From Bradyrhizobium sp. SRS-191 (GTDB lineage: Bacteria > Pseudomonadota > Alphaproteobacteria > Rhizobiales > Xanthobacteraceae): a stretch of 64,000 bases of DNA. Shown piece after piece: positions 7,302 to 17,207 of the stretch. How positions within the stretch are numbered: position 1 is the stretch's first letter; each line of letters begins with the position of its first letter. The notes beneath the pieces were generated by a model. That model was not told the origin of the DNA. It ran no database searches and was given only the letters and a program-made list of their open reading frames with translations. The stretch spans positions 124,001 through 188,000 of the forward strand of contig NZ_JANBVS010000002.1 in assembly GCF_024586915.1 (NCBI RefSeq), given 5' to 3'. Both the position numbers and the translations under genes were made by a program.

Positions 7302-7602
7302 GATCGATGGGGCCTTCTTGGAAACAGCGCGCCAGGAATGGAAAGCGCTTGTGAAATCAAGCGCGTCATAGCACTGCTGCACCGCATGCGGAAGCGCACC
7401 CGGTAGGCTCACGGTGCTGATTTTCGCAGCCCGCTCATGCGGTGGGCAAAGCCGGCAAGGCGACGGCCTGCGATTTCGAGCAAACTGCAAATTTCTTGGC
7501 TAAGCCGATTATTTTGCTTGAGAATTCTGGCCAGCCGGGCCAACGGAGCGGGCAGGGCGCCGCAGCGGCGCTTCATCTGACATGGAAGTTGAGGATCGAC
7601 CG

Positions 7603-8802
7603 GTGTCGGGCACCGACAAGACCAAGGCAGGAATGGAGATCGCCGGCCCAGTGGTGATCCTTGTCGAGCCGCAGCTCGGCGAGAACATCGGCATGGCTGC
7701 GCGCGCCATGGGCAACTTTGCGCTGACCGAGCTGCGCCTGGTGAACCCGCGCGACGGCTGGCCGAACATCGCGGCCGAGCGGGCAGCCGCCGGCGCCGAT
7801 CACATCATCGACCATGTCCGCCTCTTCGACACGCTGCCGGAGGCGATCGCCGATCTCGACCTGGTGTTCGCCACCACCGCGCGCTCCCACGACCAGGCCA
7901 AGCCGGTGATGGGCCCGGAGGGGGCGGCGCGGGAGATGCAGGGCCAGATCGCCGCCGGCGGCCGGGCCGGCATCCTGTTCGGCCGCGAGCGGGCCGGCCT
8001 CACCAACGAGGAGGTCGCCCGGGCCAACCGCATCATCACGTACCCGGTCAATCCGGGCTTCGCCTCGCTCAACCTCGCCCAGGCCGTGCTGCTGATGGGC
8101 TATGAATGGTTCAAGCTGGTCACCTCGGGCTCGCTGCCGTTCGAGATGCCCGAGCGCTCCGAGCGCGCCAGCCAGGGGCAGATGGAGGCCTTCTTCGAGA
8201 ACCTCGTGCGCGAGCTCGACCGGGTCGAATTTCTGCGGCCTGCCGAGAAGCGCGAGACCATGCTGGTCAATCTGCGCAACATCTTCTTCCGCATGGAGCC
8301 GAGCCGGCAGGACATTCATACGTTGCACGGCATCGTCATGGCGATCGCCGAGGGGCGCAAGGGGCCGGCCAAGGGCGGCGTGCTCGACAGCGAACAGGCG
8401 ATGCGCTTGCGGGCGCTGATCGCGGAGCAGGGCACAATCGCCAACCTGCCGGATTCCCGCGGCTCGCTGCGTGGGCTGGCGCGGCTGCTCCGCCGCAACC
8501 CGACCGATGCCGAGCGCGCGCTGTGGCATGCGCTGTCGCGCGACCGGCGCTTCGCCGGCCAGTTCAAGCGCCAGACCCCGGTCGGCCGCCACATCCCGGA
8601 TTTCGTCTCCTTCATCCACCGCCTTGCGATCGAGCTGGTGGGGACCGACGAGAGCGAAGGCGTGGTCGCAGACCGTGCGCAGCGCCGGGCTTGGCTGGAG
8701 AGCCGCGACTACCGCGTCACCGAGGTGAGGACGGCGGATGTCGAGGCGGATCTGGAAGCCGAGCTGGTCAGGCTGCAGGCGCTGATTGCGCAGACGAAGT
8801 AG
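7603..8802 (+). CDS. TrmJ-family tRNA methyltransferase fused to a DUF559-like nuclease domain
   Basis: A 399-residue protein (406 from an upstream ATG at 7582). The GTG at 7603 is preferred because GAGGA lies 8 bases before it. Residues about 10-255 are a SPOUT methyltransferase of the TrmJ type, which 2'-O-methylates position 32 of tRNAs with SAM: VVILVEPQLGENIGMAARAM, the LVNPRDGWPN block, ILFGRERAGLTNEE (knot loop) and NPGFASLNLAQAV. After a linker, residues about 285-395 match DUF559, a Vsr/PD-(D/E)xK-like domain (LRRNPTDAERALWHALSRDR, F-x-RQTPVGRHIPDFV, then a WLES-x-DYRV tail). In the second half the usual VEVDGGQH stretch reads IELVGTDES, so the nuclease site may be altered. Confidence 0.85.
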   Translation: MSGTDKTKAGMEIAGPVVILVEPQLGENIGMAARAMGNFALTELRLVNPRDGWPNIAAERAAAGADHIIDHVRLFDTLPEAIADLDLVFATTARSHDQAKPVMGPEGAAREMQGQIAAGGRAGILFGRERAGLTNEEVARANRIITYPVNPGFASLNLAQAVLLMGYEWFKLVTSGSLPFEMPERSERASQGQMEAFFENLVRELDRVEFLRPAEKRETMLVNLRNIFFRMEPSRQDIHTLHGIVMAIAEGRKGPAKGGVLDSEQAMRLRALIAEQGTIANLPDSRGSLRGLARLLRRNPTDAERALWHALSRDRRFAGQFKRQTPVGRHIPDFVSFIHRLAIELVGTDESEGVVADRAQRRAWLESRDYRVTEVRTADVEADLEAELVRLQALIAQTK

Positions 8803-10379: not shown

Positions 10380-12098
10380 ATGCCGATCCAGCCGCAGGGC
10401 CTACGCAAGCCGCAGACCGACCGGAACAGCGACCAGACCGGATTCTTCGAGAACGACAGCTGGTTCACATCCGACCTCGCCCCGTTGTGGCTGCCGAACC
10501 AGGCCCCTGCGGCCCCCGCAGCGCCCGCGGCTCCGCCGGCAGCAGCAACGGCGGATACGTCGGCAGCCATCGCGATCTACGGCAATTTCTGCAGCGTCGC
10601 TGCGACCGTGACCACGACGCCCGGCACGACCTCGGGCGTGAGCTCGACGACGTCGACCTCGACGGTTGCGGCAACGTCCACGACCAAGACCCCCGCGCCG
10701 GCCTGGGTGAATACCCTCACCAACGCCCAGATCAAGGCCGACATGACGGCCGCGATCACCAATGGCACGGTCACCTATGCCGGCCTGCTGAAGATCTTCA
10801 CCGATATCGATGCGACGCTCGCCGCGACCAAGACCAAGCTGAGCGCGAGCCAGTTTGCCGATCTCAAGACGATCGCCGCCAATCTCAACAACGGCGTATC
10901 GACCTCGAGCTATCTCACCTACATCACCCAGGCGTTCGTCAACGGCAATGCCGCGAACGCGACCTGGACCGGCGGCGCGGCGAGCTCGGTTGCGCTCGGC
11001 AATCTCGCTAGCGGCTCGACCGAGCTGCAATTCGCCGAGCTGATCGGCAAGTGGTTCCTCGGCACCGACCTGCCGTCGTCGAAGGTGATCCTCGGCAGCA
11101 CGCAATTCTCGGTGTCCTATTCGAACTCGACCAAGCCGCTGTTCTCCGCCGCCGGCGCCAGCATGAACGACATCAACCAGGGCTATCTGGGTGATTGCTA
11201 CCTGCTCGCCGGGCTCGCCGAGGTCGCCTACAAGGAGCAGTCGGTGATCTCCTCGATGTTCACGACCAACGGCAACGGCAGCTATGGCGTGCGCTTCTAC
11301 GTCAATGGCACGGCGCGCTACGTGACCGTCAACAGCGCGCTTGCCAATGGCGGCAACATCTTCAACAATGGCGGCGCTGCGATCTGGGCGAGTCTCGCCG
11401 AAAAGGGCTATGCCGAGCTGCAGGCCAGCGGCGTCTACACCGGCAACTCCATCAACTACGGCAATTCCTACACCACGATCGGCAATGGCGGCGCGCCCGA
11501 GATCGCGCTGGAGGCGATCACCGGCGCGACCCAGATCACCGACTTCCGCGCCATGGGCGGCTCCTGGGGCAAGGTGGTCTACAATTCGTCGTTCGGCGTG
11601 ACGAACTATACCACGGGCAATTCGACGTCGGGCGTGCTGTCGACCATCGCGGCCAGTCTCGCGGCCGGCGACGACGTCATCCTCTCGTCCTACACCAACG
11701 CCAAGGATGCGACCGGCAAGACGACGCTGGTCGCCAACCACGCGATGTCGATCTACGGCTACAACAGCGCCAACTGCATGCTGCAGATCCGCAATCCCTG
11801 GGGCTCGGCGGCCGGCCAGTACTGGCAGACCACCTTCGAGGTCAGCCTCGCGACCCTGCTCGCCGCCGGCGACACCATCACGATCGACAATGTCGGCGAC
11901 GCCAAGAAGCTGGCGGCGGCAACGATCACCACGTCATCGGGACTGAAGCTGACGTCCGATGTCAACGACCTCGCGGGCGCGGCCTCCGGCTTCGTCCAGG
12001 CGATCGCATCGCTGACCGATGGCGGTGCGTCGAACGTGGCGTTCACGCAGGGCCTGGCCTCGCAGCAGCATACGCTGGCAATGCCGCTGGCGGCGTGA
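10380..12098 (+). CDS. Calpain-like (family C2) cysteine protease, likely type I secretion substrate
   Basis: A 572-residue protein whose centre carries a calpain catalytic core: QGYLGDCYLLAGLAE (Cys273), NHAMSIYGY (His454) and IRNPWGS (Asn472), in the right order and spacing. Residues 1-100 are low-complexity (Ala/Pro then Thr/Ser), followed by a helical part (about 105-200). There is no Sec signal peptide and no RTX glycine repeat. The C-terminus is hydrophobic (QQHTLAMPLAA), as in uncleaved type I export signals. ATG 10380 is chosen because GGAGAG precedes it by 9 bases; the frame extends upstream without support. The next two genes encode a type I secretion ATPase and adaptor, so this is probably their cargo. 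Confidence 0.82.
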   Translation: MPIQPQGLRKPQTDRNSDQTGFFENDSWFTSDLAPLWLPNQAPAAPAAPAAPPAAATADTSAAIAIYGNFCSVAATVTTTPGTTSGVSSTTSTSTVAATSTTKTPAPAWVNTLTNAQIKADMTAAITNGTVTYAGLLKIFTDIDATLAATKTKLSASQFADLKTIAANLNNGVSTSSYLTYITQAFVNGNAANATWTGGAASSVALGNLASGSTELQFAELIGKWFLGTDLPSSKVILGSTQFSVSYSNSTKPLFSAAGASMNDINQGYLGDCYLLAGLAEVAYKEQSVISSMFTTNGNGSYGVRFYVNGTARYVTVNSALANGGNIFNNGGAAIWASLAEKGYAELQASGVYTGNSINYGNSYTTIGNGGAPEIALEAITGATQITDFRAMGGSWGKVVYNSSFGVTNYTTGNSTSGVLSTIAASLAAGDDVILSSYTNAKDATGKTTLVANHAMSIYGYNSANCMLQIRNPWGSAAGQYWQTTFEVSLATLLAAGDTITIDNVGDAKKLAAATITTSSGLKLTSDVNDLAGAASGFVQAIASLTDGGASNVAFTQGLASQQHTLAMPLAA

Positions 12099-12121
12099 TC
12101 CCGCGTTCCAGCGACTGAGAA

Positions 12122-12150
12122 TGGACCGCCCCCGCGCAGCGGGGGCGGTC
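12122..12150 (+). terminator. Perfect 12-bp hairpin after the calpain gene
   Basis: GACCGCCCCCGC (12124-12135) pairs perfectly with 12139-12150 around a 3-base loop. There is no T-run behind it, so it may act as a weak or Rho-assisted terminator or an RNA-stabilising hairpin between the cargo gene and the exporter genes. Confidence 0.55.
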
Positions 12151-12188
12151 GTGTCGTATCAGCCGATTCCTGCTGCATCCATACCCAC

Positions 12189-12232
12189 CGTCATTCCGGG
12201 GCAAGGCCGCAGGCCTTGAGCCGGGAATGACG
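12189..12232. repeat. Short palindromic intergenic repeat
   Basis: CGTCATTCCGG at the left end is answered by CCGGGAATGACG at the right end, giving a hairpin. The same CGTCATTCC ends recur at 61151-61258, and CGTCAT ends at 50077-50107, so this is one copy of a dispersed REP-like element. Confidence 0.65.
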
Positions 12233-12397
12233 AGGCAAGCCGCGACTGACCCGCATGTTGTGACGCGGATCGTGGAGTGCCCCGGATGCGGCCGGCAACG
12301 CCGTACGTCACCTGTTAATCATCCGATTTAACGCCATGCGAACGCAGGTCCCGGAGGGTGTCGGCGGGGACGTCGGACCAAGAGGCGGGATCGATCG

Positions 12398-14515
12398 ATG
12401 CAGGCGTGTACGGATCAGGGCGCATGGGCGCTGGCGCTGTCGCTGCATTTGCTCGGCATCGTCGCCGATCCCGGCCGCATCCAGCACGAGGCCGGCCGCA
12501 GCGATGCGCTCACGATCGATGATCTCCTGCGCGCCACAGCGCGCTTTCCGGTCAAGGCCAAGCTCGTCACGTCCAAGGCCGCGCGGCTGAAGAGCACGCC
12601 GCTGCCGACGGTCGCCGTGCTCAAGGATGGCGGCTTCGCCGTGATCGGCAAGGTCACCGAGACCGGCGTCCTCGTTCAAGGGCTGAACGATTCGGGGCCG
12701 CGTCTCCTGACCTTTGCTGAATTCGACGCGATCTGGTCCGGTCAGCTGATCCTGATCGCCAAGCGCGCGGAGCTGTCCGACACGGCGCGGCGGTTCAATT
12801 TGGGCTGGTTCGTCGCGGCGATCGGAAAATATCGCCGCATCCTGATCGAGGTGCTGCTGGCCTCGTTCGTGATCCAGCTGTTCGGCCTGGCGACCCCGAT
12901 GATCTTCCAGGTCGTGATCGACAAGGTGCTGGTGCATCGCGGCCTGTCGACGCTGGAGGTGATGGTCGCGGGCCTCGCGCTGATCGCGCTGTTCGAGGCG
13001 GTGCTGTCGGGCCTGCGCACCTACCTGTTCACCCATACGTCGAACCGCATCGACGTCGAGCTCGGCGCGCGGCTGTTCCGGCACCTGATGCGGTTGCCGC
13101 TGGCCTATTTCGAGAGCCGCCGCGTCGGCGACAGCGTCGCGCGCGTGCGCGAGCTGGAGACGATCCGGCAGTTCATCACCTCATCCTCGATCACGCTGGT
13201 GCTCGATCTCGCCTTCGCCGCGGTCTTCATCGGCGTGATGTTTCTCTACAGCGCCACGCTGGCCTGGATCGTCTGCGCCACGCTGCCGGTTTATGCGCTG
13301 CTGTCGCTCGCAACGACGCCGGCATTCCGGACGCGACTGGACGAGAAATTCCGCCGCGGCGCCGAGAACCAGGCGTTCCTGGTCGAGAGCGTCACCGGGG
13401 TCGAGACCATCAAGGCGATGGCGGTCGAGCCGCTGATGCAGCGGCGCTGGGAGGAGCAGCTCGCGAGCTATGTCGGCGCCTCGTTCTCGGCCTCGCAGAT
13501 CGGCAATTGGGCGAGCCAGGCCGCGAGCCTGCTGAACAAGGGCGTCGGCGCGCTGACGCTGTTCGTGGGCGCAGGCCTCGTGATCGCCAACAAGATGACG
13601 GTCGGCGAGCTCGTCGCCTTCAACATGCTCGCAAACCAGGTCTCCGGCCCGGTGCTGCGGCTGGTGCAGGTCTGGCAGGATTTCCACCAGGTGCGGCTGT
13701 CGGTCGAGCGGCTCGGCGACATCCTCAACACGCCGGTGGAGGCGCAGAGTGGCGGCGCCGAGCAGAACCTTCCGCCGGTCGAAGGCGCCATCGAGTTCGA
13801 GCGCGTGACCTTTCGTTACGGCCTCAACACCCAGCCGGTGCTGCGCGAGGTGTCGCTCAGTATCGGGGCAGGGCAGGTGGTCGGCATCGTCGGACCGTCC
13901 GGGTCCGGCAAGAGCACGATCGCCAAGCTGGCGCAGCGGCTGTACCAGCCGGAAGCAGGACGCGTGCTGGTCGACGGCGTGGACACCGCCGTGCTCGATC
14001 CGTCCTGGCTGCGGCGGCAGATCGGCGTGGTGCTGCAGGAGAACGTGCTGTTCAACCGCTCGGTGCGCGACAACATCGCGCTCGCCGATCCCGCGCTGCC
14101 GATGGAGCGGATCGTCGAGGCCGCGAGGCTCGCCGGCGCGCATGAGTTCATCTGCCGGATGCCGCAGGGCTATGACACGGTCATCGGCGAGCGCGGCGTG
14201 TCGCTGTCCGGCGGCCAGCGCCAGCGTATCGCGATCGCGCGCGCGCTGGTCGGCGATCCCCGCATCCTGATTTTCGACGAGGCGACGTCGGCGCTCGACT
14301 ACGAGTCCGAGAGCATCATCCAGGCCAACATGCGCGACATCGTGCGCGGCCGCACCGTGCTGATCATCGCGCACCGGCTGTCGACGGTGCGCCATGCCGA
14401 CCGCATCCTGACGATCGAGAGCGGCGTGATCGTCGAGGACGGCACGCATGAGCAATTGGTAGCCGGCGGCGGCCGCTATGCCACGCTGCACCGGATCCAG
14501 TCCGCAGGCCGTTGA
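12398..14515 (+). CDS. Type I secretion ABC transporter (HlyB-like, with C39-like domain)
   Basis: A 705-residue inner-membrane exporter. Residues 1-125 align with the HlyB C39-like domain (DQGAWALALSLHLLGI, then LPTVAVLKDGGFAVIGKV and FDAIWSGQLILIAKR). The catalytic Cys of true C39 peptidases is missing at the expected site, so the domain should bind rather than cut the substrate. About six transmembrane helices follow (roughly 150-420). The ATPase domain has Walker [10 protein letters not shown] (about 499-507), LSGGQRQRIAIARAL, and ILIFDEATSALD. This pattern marks a type I secretion system for uncleaved C-terminal signals. It sits between the calpain gene and the HlyD adaptor; no TolC-like gene is in the window. 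Confidence 0.93.
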   Translation: MQACTDQGAWALALSLHLLGIVADPGRIQHEAGRSDALTIDDLLRATARFPVKAKLVTSKAARLKSTPLPTVAVLKDGGFAVIGKVTETGVLVQGLNDSGPRLLTFAEFDAIWSGQLILIAKRAELSDTARRFNLGWFVAAIGKYRRILIEVLLASFVIQLFGLATPMIFQVVIDKVLVHRGLSTLEVMVAGLALIALFEAVLSGLRTYLFTHTSNRIDVELGARLFRHLMRLPLAYFESRRVGDSVARVRELETIRQFITSSSITLVLDLAFAAVFIGVMFLYSATLAWIVCATLPVYALLSLATTPAFRTRLDEKFRRGAENQAFLVESVTGVETIKAMAVEPLMQRRWEEQLASYVGASFSASQIGNWASQAASLLNKGVGALTLFVGAGLVIANKMTVGELVAFNMLANQVSGPVLRLVQVWQDFHQVRLSVERLGDILNTPVEAQSGGAEQNLPPVEGAIEFERVTFRYGLNTQPVLREVSLSIGAGQVVGIVGPSGSGKSTIAKLAQRLYQPEAGRVLVDGVDTAVLDPSWLRRQIGVVLQENVLFNRSVRDNIALADPALPMERIVEAARLAGAHEFICRMPQGYDTVIGERGVSLSGGQRQRIAIARALVGDPRILIFDEATSALDYESESIIQANMRDIVRGRTVLIIAHRLSTVRHADRILTIESGVIVEDGTHEQLVAGGGRYATLHRIQSAGR

Positions 14516-14525
14516 GGAGAAGGCG

Positions 14526-15944
14526 ATGAGTACACCTGCTGGCCTTCTGCGTGGCTTTTCGTTCGGCGGCACGACGTCGGAGCGCGAGTTCCTTCCCGCC
14601 GCGCTGGAGATCACGCAGACGCCGCCCAATCCGCTCGGACGCATCACGGCGCTGGCGCTGTGCACCGTCACCTTTGCGGCGCTCGGCTGGGCCGTTTTCG
14701 GCAAGGTCGACATCGTCGCGGTCGCCAGCGGCAAGGTGATCTCGCATACCCGCACACAGGTGGTGCAGCCGTTCGAGACCGCGAGCGTGAAGGCGGTGCT
14801 GGTGCAGCCCGGCCAGCGCGTAAGCGCGGGTGATCCGCTGATCGAGCTCGACAAGACCGCTGTCACCGCCGAGGCTGATCGCGCCCGCAGCGATCTGATC
14901 GCGAGCCTGCTCGACGAGGTCCGGCTGGCGGCGTTCCTCGATGGCGTCGCGAACGGACCGTTCGATCTGGTGGTCGGCGCCGAGCCGCTGGACCGCGCTC
15001 GCGCGCAGGCGCAACTCACGGCACAGCTGGCGATGCGCGCCAGCCAGCTGGCGGCGCTGGCGCAGGAGCGAGCGCAGCACATTGCCGAGCGCGAGGCGCT
15101 GCAGCAGACGGTGGCCAAATACGAGCAGACGCTGCCGATGGTGACGCAGCGCGCCGACATCCGCACCAAGGCGAGCGAGATCGGCAACGCTTCGATCATC
15201 GCCCGGCTGGAGAGCCAACAGCTGCTGGTCGAGACCCGCTCCGAGCTGGAGATCAACAAGGCCAAGATCATCGCGTTGGATGCCACCGTCGCAGGACTCG
15301 ATCAGAAGATCGCGGCGACCGAGGCCGACATGCGCGACAAGGCGATGCGTGACCTCGCCACCGCGCGCGAGCGCGCCCGCGCGGCCGGAGAGGCGCTGAC
15401 CAAGGCCACCCGCCGCGCCGAGCTGCAGACCTTGCGCGCGCCGATCGACGGTACGGTGCAGCAGATGCACGTCGCCGCCGCCGGCGCGGTCGTGACACCG
15501 GCGCAGCAGCTGTTGTCCGTGGTGCCCGACGACGACAGGATCGAGGTCGAGGCGGTGGTGGAGAACCGCGACGTCGGCTTCGTCGAAGCCGGGCAGCGCG
15601 TCGAGCTCAAGGTCGACGCCTTCCCGTTCACGCGTTACGGCCTGCTCGGCGGCAAGGTGACCTCGGTCGATCGCGACGCCGAGGCCGCGCCCGTCAATCC
15701 CCAGGGCGTGCAAGGTGCCGAGCGGCAGGCCGACCAGACCGACCGCGTCGAGGCCAGCGAGCGGCTGCGCTACATGGTGCACATCGCGCTCGACCGAGCG
15801 ACGCTCGACGTCGACGGCCGGATGGCAACGCTCGTGCCGGGCATGTCGGTGAAGGCGGAGATTCTCACCGGCAAGCGCCGCATCGTCGACTTCCTGCTGG
15901 CGCCGCTGCGCGAGCATGTTCACGACGCCATGCGCGAGCGCTGA
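14526..15944 (+). CDS. Type I secretion periplasmic adaptor, HlyD family
   Basis: A 472-residue membrane-fusion protein that would link the HlyB-like ATPase to an outer-membrane channel. A single transmembrane helix lies near residues 38-58 (ITALALCTVTFAALGWAVFG), followed by a split lipoyl/barrel-sandwich domain (VVQPFETASVKAVLVQPGQR ... LRAPIDGTVQQMHV) around a long alpha-helical hairpin rich in Ala, Arg and Glu (about 115-310). The RTX-type C-terminal block LVPGMSVKAEILTGKRRIVDFLLAPL is typical. GAGGAGAAGG lies before the ATG, 10 bases after the exporter stop, so the two genes are co-translated from one message. Confidence 0.93.
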   Translation: MSTPAGLLRGFSFGGTTSEREFLPAALEITQTPPNPLGRITALALCTVTFAALGWAVFGKVDIVAVASGKVISHTRTQVVQPFETASVKAVLVQPGQRVSAGDPLIELDKTAVTAEADRARSDLIASLLDEVRLAAFLDGVANGPFDLVVGAEPLDRARAQAQLTAQLAMRASQLAALAQERAQHIAEREALQQTVAKYEQTLPMVTQRADIRTKASEIGNASIIARLESQQLLVETRSELEINKAKIIALDATVAGLDQKIAATEADMRDKAMRDLATARERARAAGEALTKATRRAELQTLRAPIDGTVQQMHVAAAGAVVTPAQQLLSVVPDDDRIEVEAVVENRDVGFVEAGQRVELKVDAFPFTRYGLLGGKVTSVDRDAEAAPVNPQGVQGAERQADQTDRVEASERLRYMVHIALDRATLDVDGRMATLVPGMSVKAEILTGKRRIVDFLLAPLREHVHDAMRER

Positions 15945-16088
15945 TCGACCGGCATGCTTAACGTGCTCCCGCGCATTTGAGCAAAAACGTAACCTCAAAT
16001 CCGTACGCGAACGCTTACGGAACGCTCGCGTTCGGACGGTATGTTTCGCGCATTCGCTTTCCTCATTGCGGTGTTGTGGCTTCTCATC

Positions 16089-17207
16089 ATGAACGAGACA
16101 AAATCGGTATTGCGCGAGCTGGAAGACGCGATTGCGCGGGGCACGGCCGACAGCCGCGAGCGCGCGCTGTGGCACGCGACCGACCTGCTGCTCGCCGGCC
16201 GCTATTGCGAGGAGGAGATCGCGACGTTCGGCGAGGTGATCAACCGGCTCGCCGACGAGATCGAGGTCGAGGCCCGCGCCAAGCTCGCCGACCGTCTCGC
16301 CAAGATCGAATATTCGCCGGCCAGCGTCATCCGCAAGCTCGCCTTCGATGACGAGATCTGGGTCGCCGGTCCGGTGCTGCGCGAGTCCGAACGCCTCGAC
16401 GACGCTGCGCTGGTCGAGAATGCCAGCACCAAGAGCCAAGCCCATCTGCTCGCCATCGCCGAGCGCAAGACGCTGAGCCCGGAGGTGACGGACGTGCTGG
16501 CGCGGCGCGGTGACCGCGATGTCGCGACCGCAGTGGCGCGCAATCACGGCGCGCAGTTCTCCGGCGCCGGCTTCCTGCACATGGTGAAACGCGCCGAGAA
16601 CGACTCCATCCTGGCCGAGCATCTCGGCCGTCGGCTCGACATCCCGCGCCACCTGTTCCAGCAATTGATCGCCAAGGCGTCCGACGAGGTCGGCAAGCGG
16701 CTGGCGAGCGAGCGCCCTGAGCTGCTCGGCGAGATCGAGAGCTCGGTCGCCAACATCGCCGGCGATCTGCAATCGAAATTCGGGCCCGGCTCGCGCAACT
16801 ACTTCGTCGCCAAGCGCACCGTGACGATCCAGCACCGCCTCGGCAATCTGCACGAGAGCACCATTGCCGGCTATGCGACGTCGCACAAGGTCGACGAGGT
16901 GACGATCGGTCTGTCGCTGCTCTCGGGACTGCCGGTCGACGTGGTCGATCGGGCGCTGTTCGATCGCAATCGCGAGATGCTGTTGATGCTGGCGAAGGCG
17001 CTCGGCTTCAGCTGGGACACGATGATGGCATTGGCCTTCCTCGGCGCCCGCGAGCATCGGATCACCGCGGGCGAACTGGACGAGCTGGAGCGGAGCTACG
17101 TCCGGCTGCAGACGCAGACTTCGCGGAGCGTCCTCGAATTCTACCAGTCGCGCAAGAATGCCGGGAAGGCTGGCGGCACACACGCGCCGCGCGCGGTAGC
17201 GCATTGA
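16089..17207 (+). CDS. DUF2336 domain-containing protein
   Basis: A 372-residue helical protein (388 if the upstream ATG at 16041 is used). It contains paired-helix repeats typical of DUF2336, for example GEVINRLADEIEVEARAKLADRLA near the N-terminus and SELD/ERSYVRLQ-type helices near the end. No signal peptide is seen from the chosen start; starting at 16041 would add a hydrophobic segment (FAFLIAVLWLLIM) that looks like read-in from upstream DNA, so 16089 is preferred. The family is common in alphaproteobacteria and has no settled function. It follows the type I secretion genes after 144 bases, so co-transcription is not obvious. Confidence 0.82.
   Translation: MNETKSVLRELEDAIARGTADSRERALWHATDLLLAGRYCEEEIATFGEVINRLADEIEVEARAKLADRLAKIEYSPASVIRKLAFDDEIWVAGPVLRESERLDDAALVENASTKSQAHLLAIAERKTLSPEVTDVLARRGDRDVATAVARNHGAQFSGAGFLHMVKRAENDSILAEHLGRRLDIPRHLFQQLIAKASDEVGKRLASERPELLGEIESSVANIAGDLQSKFGPGSRNYFVAKRTVTIQHRLGNLHESTIAGYATSHKVDEVTIGLSLLSGLPVDVVDRALFDRNREMLLMLAKALGFSWDTMMALAFLGAREHRITAGELDELERSYVRLQTQTSRSVLEFYQSRKNAGKAGGTHAPRAVAH

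What the first reader, a model, noticed from the sequence alone, without database searches (positions are those of the whole stretch)
10380..15944. Type I secretion locus with a calpain-like protease as likely cargo
An intact C-H-N calpain triad (Cys273, His454, Asn472) in a protein without Sec signal or RTX repeats stands just before an HlyB-like ATPase with an inactive C39 domain and an HlyD adaptor. Calpains are uncommon in bacteria and most type I protease cargo is of the serralysin type. A secreted calpain from a soil or plant-linked bacterium could act on host proteins.
Basis: partly seen in the sequence, partly recalled or inferred. Interest (0 to 1): 0.7.

Follow-up and report, generated by a model that had tools for sequence, protein, structure and literature searches.

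The report
Calpain protease with its own exporter
In a Bradyrhizobium genome, the gene for a calpain-type protease sits directly beside the two genes of a type I export pump, and the protease is likely shipped out of the cell by that pump, which would make it a secreted bacterial calpain.

Summary
Window 10380-12098 encodes a 572-residue calpain (PF00648) with an intact Cys273/His454/Asn472 triad, no RTX repeats and no hydrophobic N-terminal segment. A HlyB-class ATPase whose C39-like domain lacks the catalytic Cys and a HlyD adaptor follow. Four lines support the cargo reading: (1) at strict thresholds the same 8 of 265 Bradyrhizobium genomes hold the calpain and the HlyD orthologues, the other 257 neither; (2) 14 of 65 calpain loci from a genome scan have HlyB and HlyD close by, three in divergent orientation, and no fourth gene family is common to all; (3) a C-terminal tail is kept although its distance from the protease varies widely, and it tracks exporter linkage; (4) three RTX proteins beside related HlyB genes end in a similar motif. 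Against: most loci (51 of 65) are not linked in the DNA held, and the tail's role is untested. Calcium dependence is doubtful: one site-1 ligand is Ala and site 2 has no aligned counterpart. Nothing found points specifically to host proteins. Export and protease activity are inferred, not shown. New variant of a known kind: a type I exporter with a calpain as likely cargo.

The parts
10380..12098 (+). calpain-family cysteine protease (C2), 572 aa, likely type I secretion cargo
10689..10964 (+). conserved helical N-terminal domain (residues about 104-195), present in distant relatives too, no Pfam family found
   Evidence: conserved in alignment A2; pLDDT mostly above 90; no convincing Pfam or PDB sequence match
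11196..11198 (+). codon of catalytic Cys273
   Evidence: Cys in 89 of 90 aligned sequences
11739..11741 (+). codon of catalytic His454
   Evidence: 90 of 90
11793..11795 (+). codon of catalytic Asn472
   Evidence: 90 of 90
11946..12095 (+). C-terminal tail (residues about 523-572), inferred type I secretion signal; low-confidence helix 529-543, end ...TLAMPLAA
   Evidence: tail profile matches 100 of 227 proteins (its 69 seeds and the window included) at varying distance from the protease; tracks exporter linkage; similar ends on RTX proteins beside HlyB
12398..14515 (+). HlyB-class type I secretion ATPase/permease
   Evidence: TIGR01846 988 bits, cut-off 725.55; E. coli HlyB 7sgr E=8.8e-228; only match over that cut-off in the genome
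12398..12790 (+). C39-like domain without catalytic Cys
   Evidence: aligned with HlyB C39-like domain 3zua E=8.5e-9; DCG replaced in this and 14 linked HlyBs
14526..15944 (+). HlyD-class periplasmic adaptor (frame open from 14478; likely start 14526)
   Evidence: TIGR01843 327 bits, cut-off 208.65; start

Best explanation
The locus encodes a calpain-type cysteine protease directly followed by a HlyB-class ATPase and a HlyD adaptor, and the protease is likely the cargo that this pump would carry out of the cell. Inferred path: the protein is made without an evident Sec signal, its last about 50 residues (a short helix, then a ...TLAMPLAA end) are recognised by HlyB in the inner membrane, HlyB and HlyD join one of the genome's unlinked TolC-type channels, and the chain is threaded to the outside, where it would fold and act as an extracellular endopeptidase. 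The C39-like domain of HlyB lacks its catalytic Cys, so no leader would be cut off. Shown: gene order, domains, catalytic residues, linkage, co-occurrence, the shared tail. Inferred: export, the role of the tail, protease activity. The substrate is unknown.
For: Domains and triad. Co-occurrence of orthologues in the same 8 of 265 Bradyrhizobium genomes; 7 of the 8 have both on one contig, the HlyD match 2.3-2.8 kb downstream on the same strand; the eighth (G184) is an 800-contig draft whose calpain contig looks the same as L025, which ends 156 bases after the gene. Linkage in 14 of 65 loci of the genome scan, from Bradyrhizobium to a Neisseriaceae genome whose protease is 29% identical; the genes are divergent in L034, L047 and L049, so adjacency outlived rearrangement. 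Calpain, HlyB and HlyD are the only gene families common to the window and all 14 loci in the stretches held. Tail profile against linkage: 11 of 13 tail-positive assessable loci linked, 2 of 30 tail-negative. Tail kept although 12-473 residues lie between the TTFEV motif near the end of the protease core and the tail in 98 proteins. Three of three complete RTX proteins next to related HlyB genes end in ...LAPPQHA or ...LALPHAA. Other relatives end in RTX/serralysin-type modules (P0196: PF00353 and PF08548; P0048: PF00353).
Against: 51 of 65 loci show no HlyB plus HlyD in the DNA held; 21 of the 51 have under 3 kb on a side or a gene cut by the contig end, 30 do not. None of the ten 36-42%-identical Bradyrhizobium calpains has an exporter in its fetched stretch. 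L033 and L042 are tail-positive but unlinked; L050 and L067 are linked but tail-negative; L087's tail match is borderline (E=0.00097, threshold 0.001). Below 50% identity the tail test is not significant (1 of 1 against 2 of 22, P=0.13). The end motif was defined after seeing the sequences, the tail profile scores the RTX proteins only weakly (best E=0.027), and two other HlyB neighbours (L144, L149) do not match the end motif. Low content of basic residues is no mark of the tail: 4.3% K, R, H, C against 4.4% in the catalytic part. TolC partner not identified. No expression, secretion or activity data.
Confidence: 0.8

Rival explanations
1. The calpain is an accessory protease that processes or releases another cargo of this exporter (as the periplasmic protease LapG does for LapA; recalled), not the cargo itself.
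For: It is a protease beside an exporter.
Against: No other gene family is shared by the window and the 14 linked loci in the stretches held. It has no hydrophobic N-terminal segment to reach the periplasm by Sec. It carries the tail itself, and some relatives carry RTX or serralysin-type ends (by eye).
Confidence: 0.08
2. A cytoplasmic calpain that stands beside an unrelated exporter by chance or shared regulation.
For: Most eukaryotic calpains are intracellular (PMC4631099). Many relatives are not beside an exporter.
Against: Strict co-occurrence of orthologues in 265 genomes and recurrent adjacency in distant genomes, also in divergent orientation.
Confidence: 0.06
3. The calpain is only one of several cargos of this exporter, or a minor one; the main cargo is encoded elsewhere in the genome.
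For: Exporters can serve several cargos. The genome was not screened with every known tail type.
Against: The calpain tail has no second convincing copy in the genome (next best E=1.26), and this is the only HlyB over the TIGR01846 cut-off.
Confidence: 0.15

Closest known systems
HlyB/HlyD/TolC alpha-hemolysin type I secretion system
   Same: HlyB over the TIGR01846 cut-off, HlyD over the TIGR01843 cut-off, C39-like domain without catalytic Cys; likely cargo gene directly upstream of hlyB
   Different: likely cargo is a calpain without RTX repeats; the Trp77/His83 pair of the HlyB C39-like domain is absent, but the Trp is absent in 12 of 12 and the His in 11 of 12 other Bradyrhizobium HlyBs too
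Serralysin-type proteases and PrtDEF exporter
   Same: extracellular protease as type I cargo (here inferred); one calpain relative matches the serralysin C-terminal module (P0196)
   Different: cysteine protease instead of metalloprotease; exporter of HlyB class rather than PrtD class (360 bits to TIGR01842, cut-off 510.15)
Eukaryotic calpains (C2 family, calpain-1, -2, -3, -8, -9)
   Same: protease-core fold and C-H-N triad
   Different: no further calpain domain or EF-hand found by Pfam; calcium site 1 incomplete; own N-terminal helical domain and secretion-type tail
Bacterial calpains surveyed by Rawlings 2015 (PMC4631099; seen: sections 12 and 14 whole, passages of the abstract and other sections)
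   Same: same peptidase domain; that paper already suggests that a Gloeobacter homologue may act outside the cell because of its hemolysin-type repeats
   Different: no exporter linkage or tail is described in the parts seen; 'ABC transporter' and 'Bradyrhizobium' have 0 occurrences in the main text

Membership tests
Calpain family C2 (PF00648) | significant profile match | tested here: met
   66.4 bits, cut-off 23.8
Calpain family C2 (PF00648) | catalytic Cys, His, Asn | tested here: met
   C273, H454, N472; 89, 90 and 90 of 90 aligned sequences
Calpain family C2 (PF00648) | calpain protease-core fold | tested here: met
Calpain family C2 (PF00648) | peptidase activity | not testable with these tools
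   no assay
Classical calcium-dependent calpains | complete calcium site 1 of the protease core | tested here: not met
   Gly259 and Asp264 kept (88 and 90 of 90), but the Glu175 equivalent is Ala334 in this protein; Asp or Glu in 52 of 90
Classical calcium-dependent calpains | calcium site 2 of the protease core | tested here: inconclusive
   no aligned counterpart: the Pfam match ends at profile position 245 of 297 and only 12 residues lie from Asn472 to the TTFE motif; absence inferred from spacing
Type I secretion system, HlyB class | HlyB-class ATPase/permease | tested here: met
   TIGR01846 988 bits over 725.55
Type I secretion system, HlyB class | HlyD-class adaptor in the same locus | tested here: met
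   TIGR01843 327 over 208.65
Type I secretion system, HlyB class | TolC-class outer membrane channel | tested here: inconclusive
   three over the TIGR01844 cut-off in the genome, none in the locus; which one pairs is unknown
Type I secretion system, HlyB class | C39-like domain lacking catalytic Cys | tested here: met
Type I secretion cargo | gene linked to the exporter across genomes | tested here: met
   same 8 of 265 genomes; 14 of 65 loci linked; distant relatives mostly unlinked
Type I secretion cargo | C-terminal secretion signal | tested here: inconclusive
   conserved terminal tail; 73% of the last 60 residues are LDAVTSIF, a feature named in PMC8861453 (passages); function untested
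Type I secretion cargo | exporter-dependent appearance outside the cell | not testable with these tools
   needs secretome
RTX proteins | GGxGxDxUx repeats | tested here: not met
   none; PF00353 not matched

The most novel reading that the evidence does not exclude
Many alphaproteobacterial calpains are not cellular proteases but a modular class of type I exoproteases: one helical N-domain plus calpain core, joined to exchangeable C-terminal export modules (LAxP tails, RTX/serralysin ends, adhesin-type ends), each matched to its exporter. Secretion, not calcium signalling, would then be the ancestral setting of these bacterial calpains.
Probability: 0.4. Interest if true: 0.7.

Novelty: new variant of a known kind. 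Interest (0 to 1): 0.55.

Why it matters
Calpains are known mainly as calcium-controlled proteases inside eukaryotic cells, and what the bacterial ones do is open. A locus in which a calpain travels with its own exporter makes location and function testable by a single gene deletion. If export is confirmed, it would add a calpain to type I cargo and give a case against the stated pairing of C39-like-domain exporters with RTX cargo (PMC8277102, passages).

Tried and rejected
1. Loss of the Trp77/His83 pair in the C39-like domain as a mark of non-RTX cargo: rejected. In 12 other Bradyrhizobium HlyBs the Trp is absent in 12 of 12 and the His in 11 of 12, including three beside RTX proteins.

2. 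A C39-like exporter with RTX-less cargo as unique to the calpain: rejected. Other Bradyrhizobium HlyB genes stand beside long proteins without RTX families (L144 AIDA-type repeats, L145 beta helix, L146 no family). That these are cargo is inferred.

3. The perfect 12-base hairpin 12124-12150 as a conserved terminator between cargo and exporter: not supported. No T-run terminator was found. In the same gap of eight linked loci the longest perfect stems are 9, 8 and 8 bases in three (L024, L026, L030) and none of 8 or more in five, one of which is only 15 bases long.

4. N-terminal domain as an EF-hand pair: not established. The loops look like degenerate EF-hand loops in some relatives (by eye), but the PDB profile search gives calmodulin only at E about 1 and the Pfam scan of 17 members lists no EF-hand family. 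The domain alone was not folded or searched by fold.

5. First AlphaFold2 run with 17 sequences was poor (mean pLDDT 39.9) and was not used.

6. ABC transporters near L036, L039 and L088 as type I exporters: rejected, best NCBIfam match MsbA (below its cut-off) and TIGR01846 far below its cut-off.

7. Symbiosis or host role: no support found, not excluded.

8. Papers: the listings of seven searches with calpain terms (long lists were capped) showed no report of type I export of a calpain; two further searches on type I cargo were used for background. Open-licence full texts only.

Full report
What is there. The window lies in a 7.6 Mb genome. Its genus is Bradyrhizobium: contigs of genus-mates G044 and G042 have the same lengths as named B. 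macuxiense and B. oropedii contigs, and the closest loci are from Bradyrhizobium sp. BTAi1, STM 3809 and SSBR45G. Three genes on the + strand form the locus: a calpain (10380-12098), hlyB (12398-14515) and hlyD (14526 or 14478 to 15944). Profile scores are over the curated cut-offs for all three.

The exporter. HlyB is closest in the PDB to E. coli HlyB (7sgr, E=8.8e-228). Its N-terminal C39-like domain aligns with 3zua and lacks the catalytic Cys, as do the other 14 linked HlyBs. It is the only match over the TIGR01846 cut-off in the genome. Three TolC-class proteins over cut-off lie elsewhere, so the channel is not assigned.

Co-occurrence. At strict thresholds the HlyD orthologue is in 8 of 265 Bradyrhizobium genomes (E<=1e-150) and the calpain orthologue in the same 8 (E<=1e-100). 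The eight are not independent: the window's own, six at 87-91% calpain identity and one (G219) at 64%. In seven of eight the two matches are on one contig, same strand, 2.3-2.8 kb apart; G184 has them on two contigs of an 800-contig draft.

Linkage beyond the genus. One scan of genome contigs gave 65 loci. With the window's HlyB (aligned over at least 250 residues) and HlyD as queries, 14 of 65 have both close by: L024, L026, L027, L028, L029, L030, L034, L035, L047, L049, L050, L053, L067, L087. In L034, L047 and L049 the exporter genes point away from the calpain. The other 51 do not show both; 21 of these have under 3 kb on a side or a gene cut by the contig end, 30 do not. Clustering all open frames of the window and the 14 loci shows three protein families common to all 15 and no fourth (its other large clusters are antisense or out-of-frame readings of the same genes; stretch lengths differ, so a gene further off would be missed).

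The tail. The closest relatives end in a short hydrophobic helix (FVQAIASL) and a ...TLAxPLx end. A profile of 69 tails, chosen by an end motif from the 120 proteins, was run against the calpain C-termini of the loci. Among 43 assessable loci, 11 of 13 tail-positive and 2 of 30 tail-negative ones are linked (Fisher P about 1e-6). For proteases 50-66% identical it is 7 of 9 against 0 of 8 (P about 0.002); below 50% it is 1 of 1 against 2 of 22 (P=0.13). Left out: six genes cut by the contig end, L029 (tail masked) and 15 unlinked loci with under 3 kb on a side; linked loci were kept whatever their flanks, which favours linkage, and some seed proteins come from the same organisms as loci. The loci are related, so the P values are a guide only. 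L087 is of note: its protease is only 29% identical, yet it has the exporter and a borderline tail match (E=0.00097). Over all 227 proteins held, 100 match the tail profile, its seeds included; in 98 of these, 12 to 473 residues lie between the TTFEV motif near the end of the protease core and the tail. In some the insert is Ig-like domains (PF05345), so the tail behaves as a separate terminal module.

Control from other cargo. Twelve Bradyrhizobium loci around HlyD relatives of 38-45% identity were fetched (picked from the list). All 12 carry a HlyB (55-64% identical). Three complete RTX proteins sit directly beside HlyB (L140, L141, L143; 21-23 GGxGxD motifs) and all three end in LAPPQHA or LALPHAA; two more RTX-bearing frames (L142, L150) run off the stretch. 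Of four RTX-less proteins directly beside HlyB, L145 and L146 match the end motif, L144 and L149 do not. The motif L[AST]xP near the end occurs in 10 of 331 open frames there, the three RTX proteins included; it was set after looking, so this is suggestive only. The calpain tail profile ranks L141 and L140 first and second, at weak E-values (0.027 and 0.79).

Other members. Ten of the 146 genomes besides the own hold a calpain of 36-42% identity, in nine of ten with an open frame of 1125-1462 residues, without an exporter in the stretch fetched. The ends of their kind (LLGNYMASTFVAASDGHGGT...LAPPQHA) resemble by eye those of the L140, L141 and L148 proteins. Other relatives end in RTX or serralysin-type modules (P0196: PF00353 and PF08548; P0048: PF00353) or carry DUF4214, Ig or Hint domains. 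This fits a family of exoproteins with exchangeable ends.

Known work. Rawlings 2015 (PMC4631099; sections 12 and 14 whole, passages elsewhere) found bacterial calpains rare, mostly without calcium sites, and noted possible export for a Gloeobacter homologue with hemolysin-type repeats. The 2022 paper on cyanobacterial calpains (PMC9380684, passages) suggests a cytosolic location. A review (PMC8277102, passages) states that a C39-like domain in the exporter goes with RTX repeats in the cargo and vice versa; this locus, and L144-L146 if their neighbours are cargo, do not fit that rule. The listings of seven paper searches with calpain terms showed no description of a calpain as type I cargo.

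Verdict. The host-protein and calcium parts are not supported.

Noticed in passing
window 7582-8802 (+): SpoU-family RNA methylase fused to a C-terminal DUF559 domain.
   Followed up: partly
window 12189-12232: Inverted repeat CGTCATTCCGGG...CCGGGAATGACG between the calpain gene and hlyB, like a dispersed REP-type element (the resemblance is recalled); the gap folds better than shuffles (z -4.2).
   Followed up: no
L028, L034, L067 (Siculibacillus lacustris): Three calpain genes on three contigs of one genome, each with its own HlyB and HlyD.
   Followed up: partly
L144 9091-12480, L145 10022-12271, L146 9658-11937: Bradyrhizobium HlyB genes with C39-like domains beside long proteins without RTX families: AIDA-type repeats, beta helix, no family.
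   Followed up: partly
P0202: A relative whose catalytic Cys is replaced by Gly, perhaps an inactive calpain.
   Followed up: no
P0213: Calpain followed by a Hint_2 domain in one 1489-residue protein, possibly self-cleaving.
   Followed up: no
window 16041-17207 (+): DUF2336 protein downstream of hlyD, also there in BTAi1 (L024) and SSBR45G (L026) but not matched in the other linked loci.
   Followed up: partly
window 10689-10964: Conserved N-terminal domain of two helix-loop-helix units whose loops resemble degenerate EF-hands in some relatives; no significant match.
   Followed up: partly
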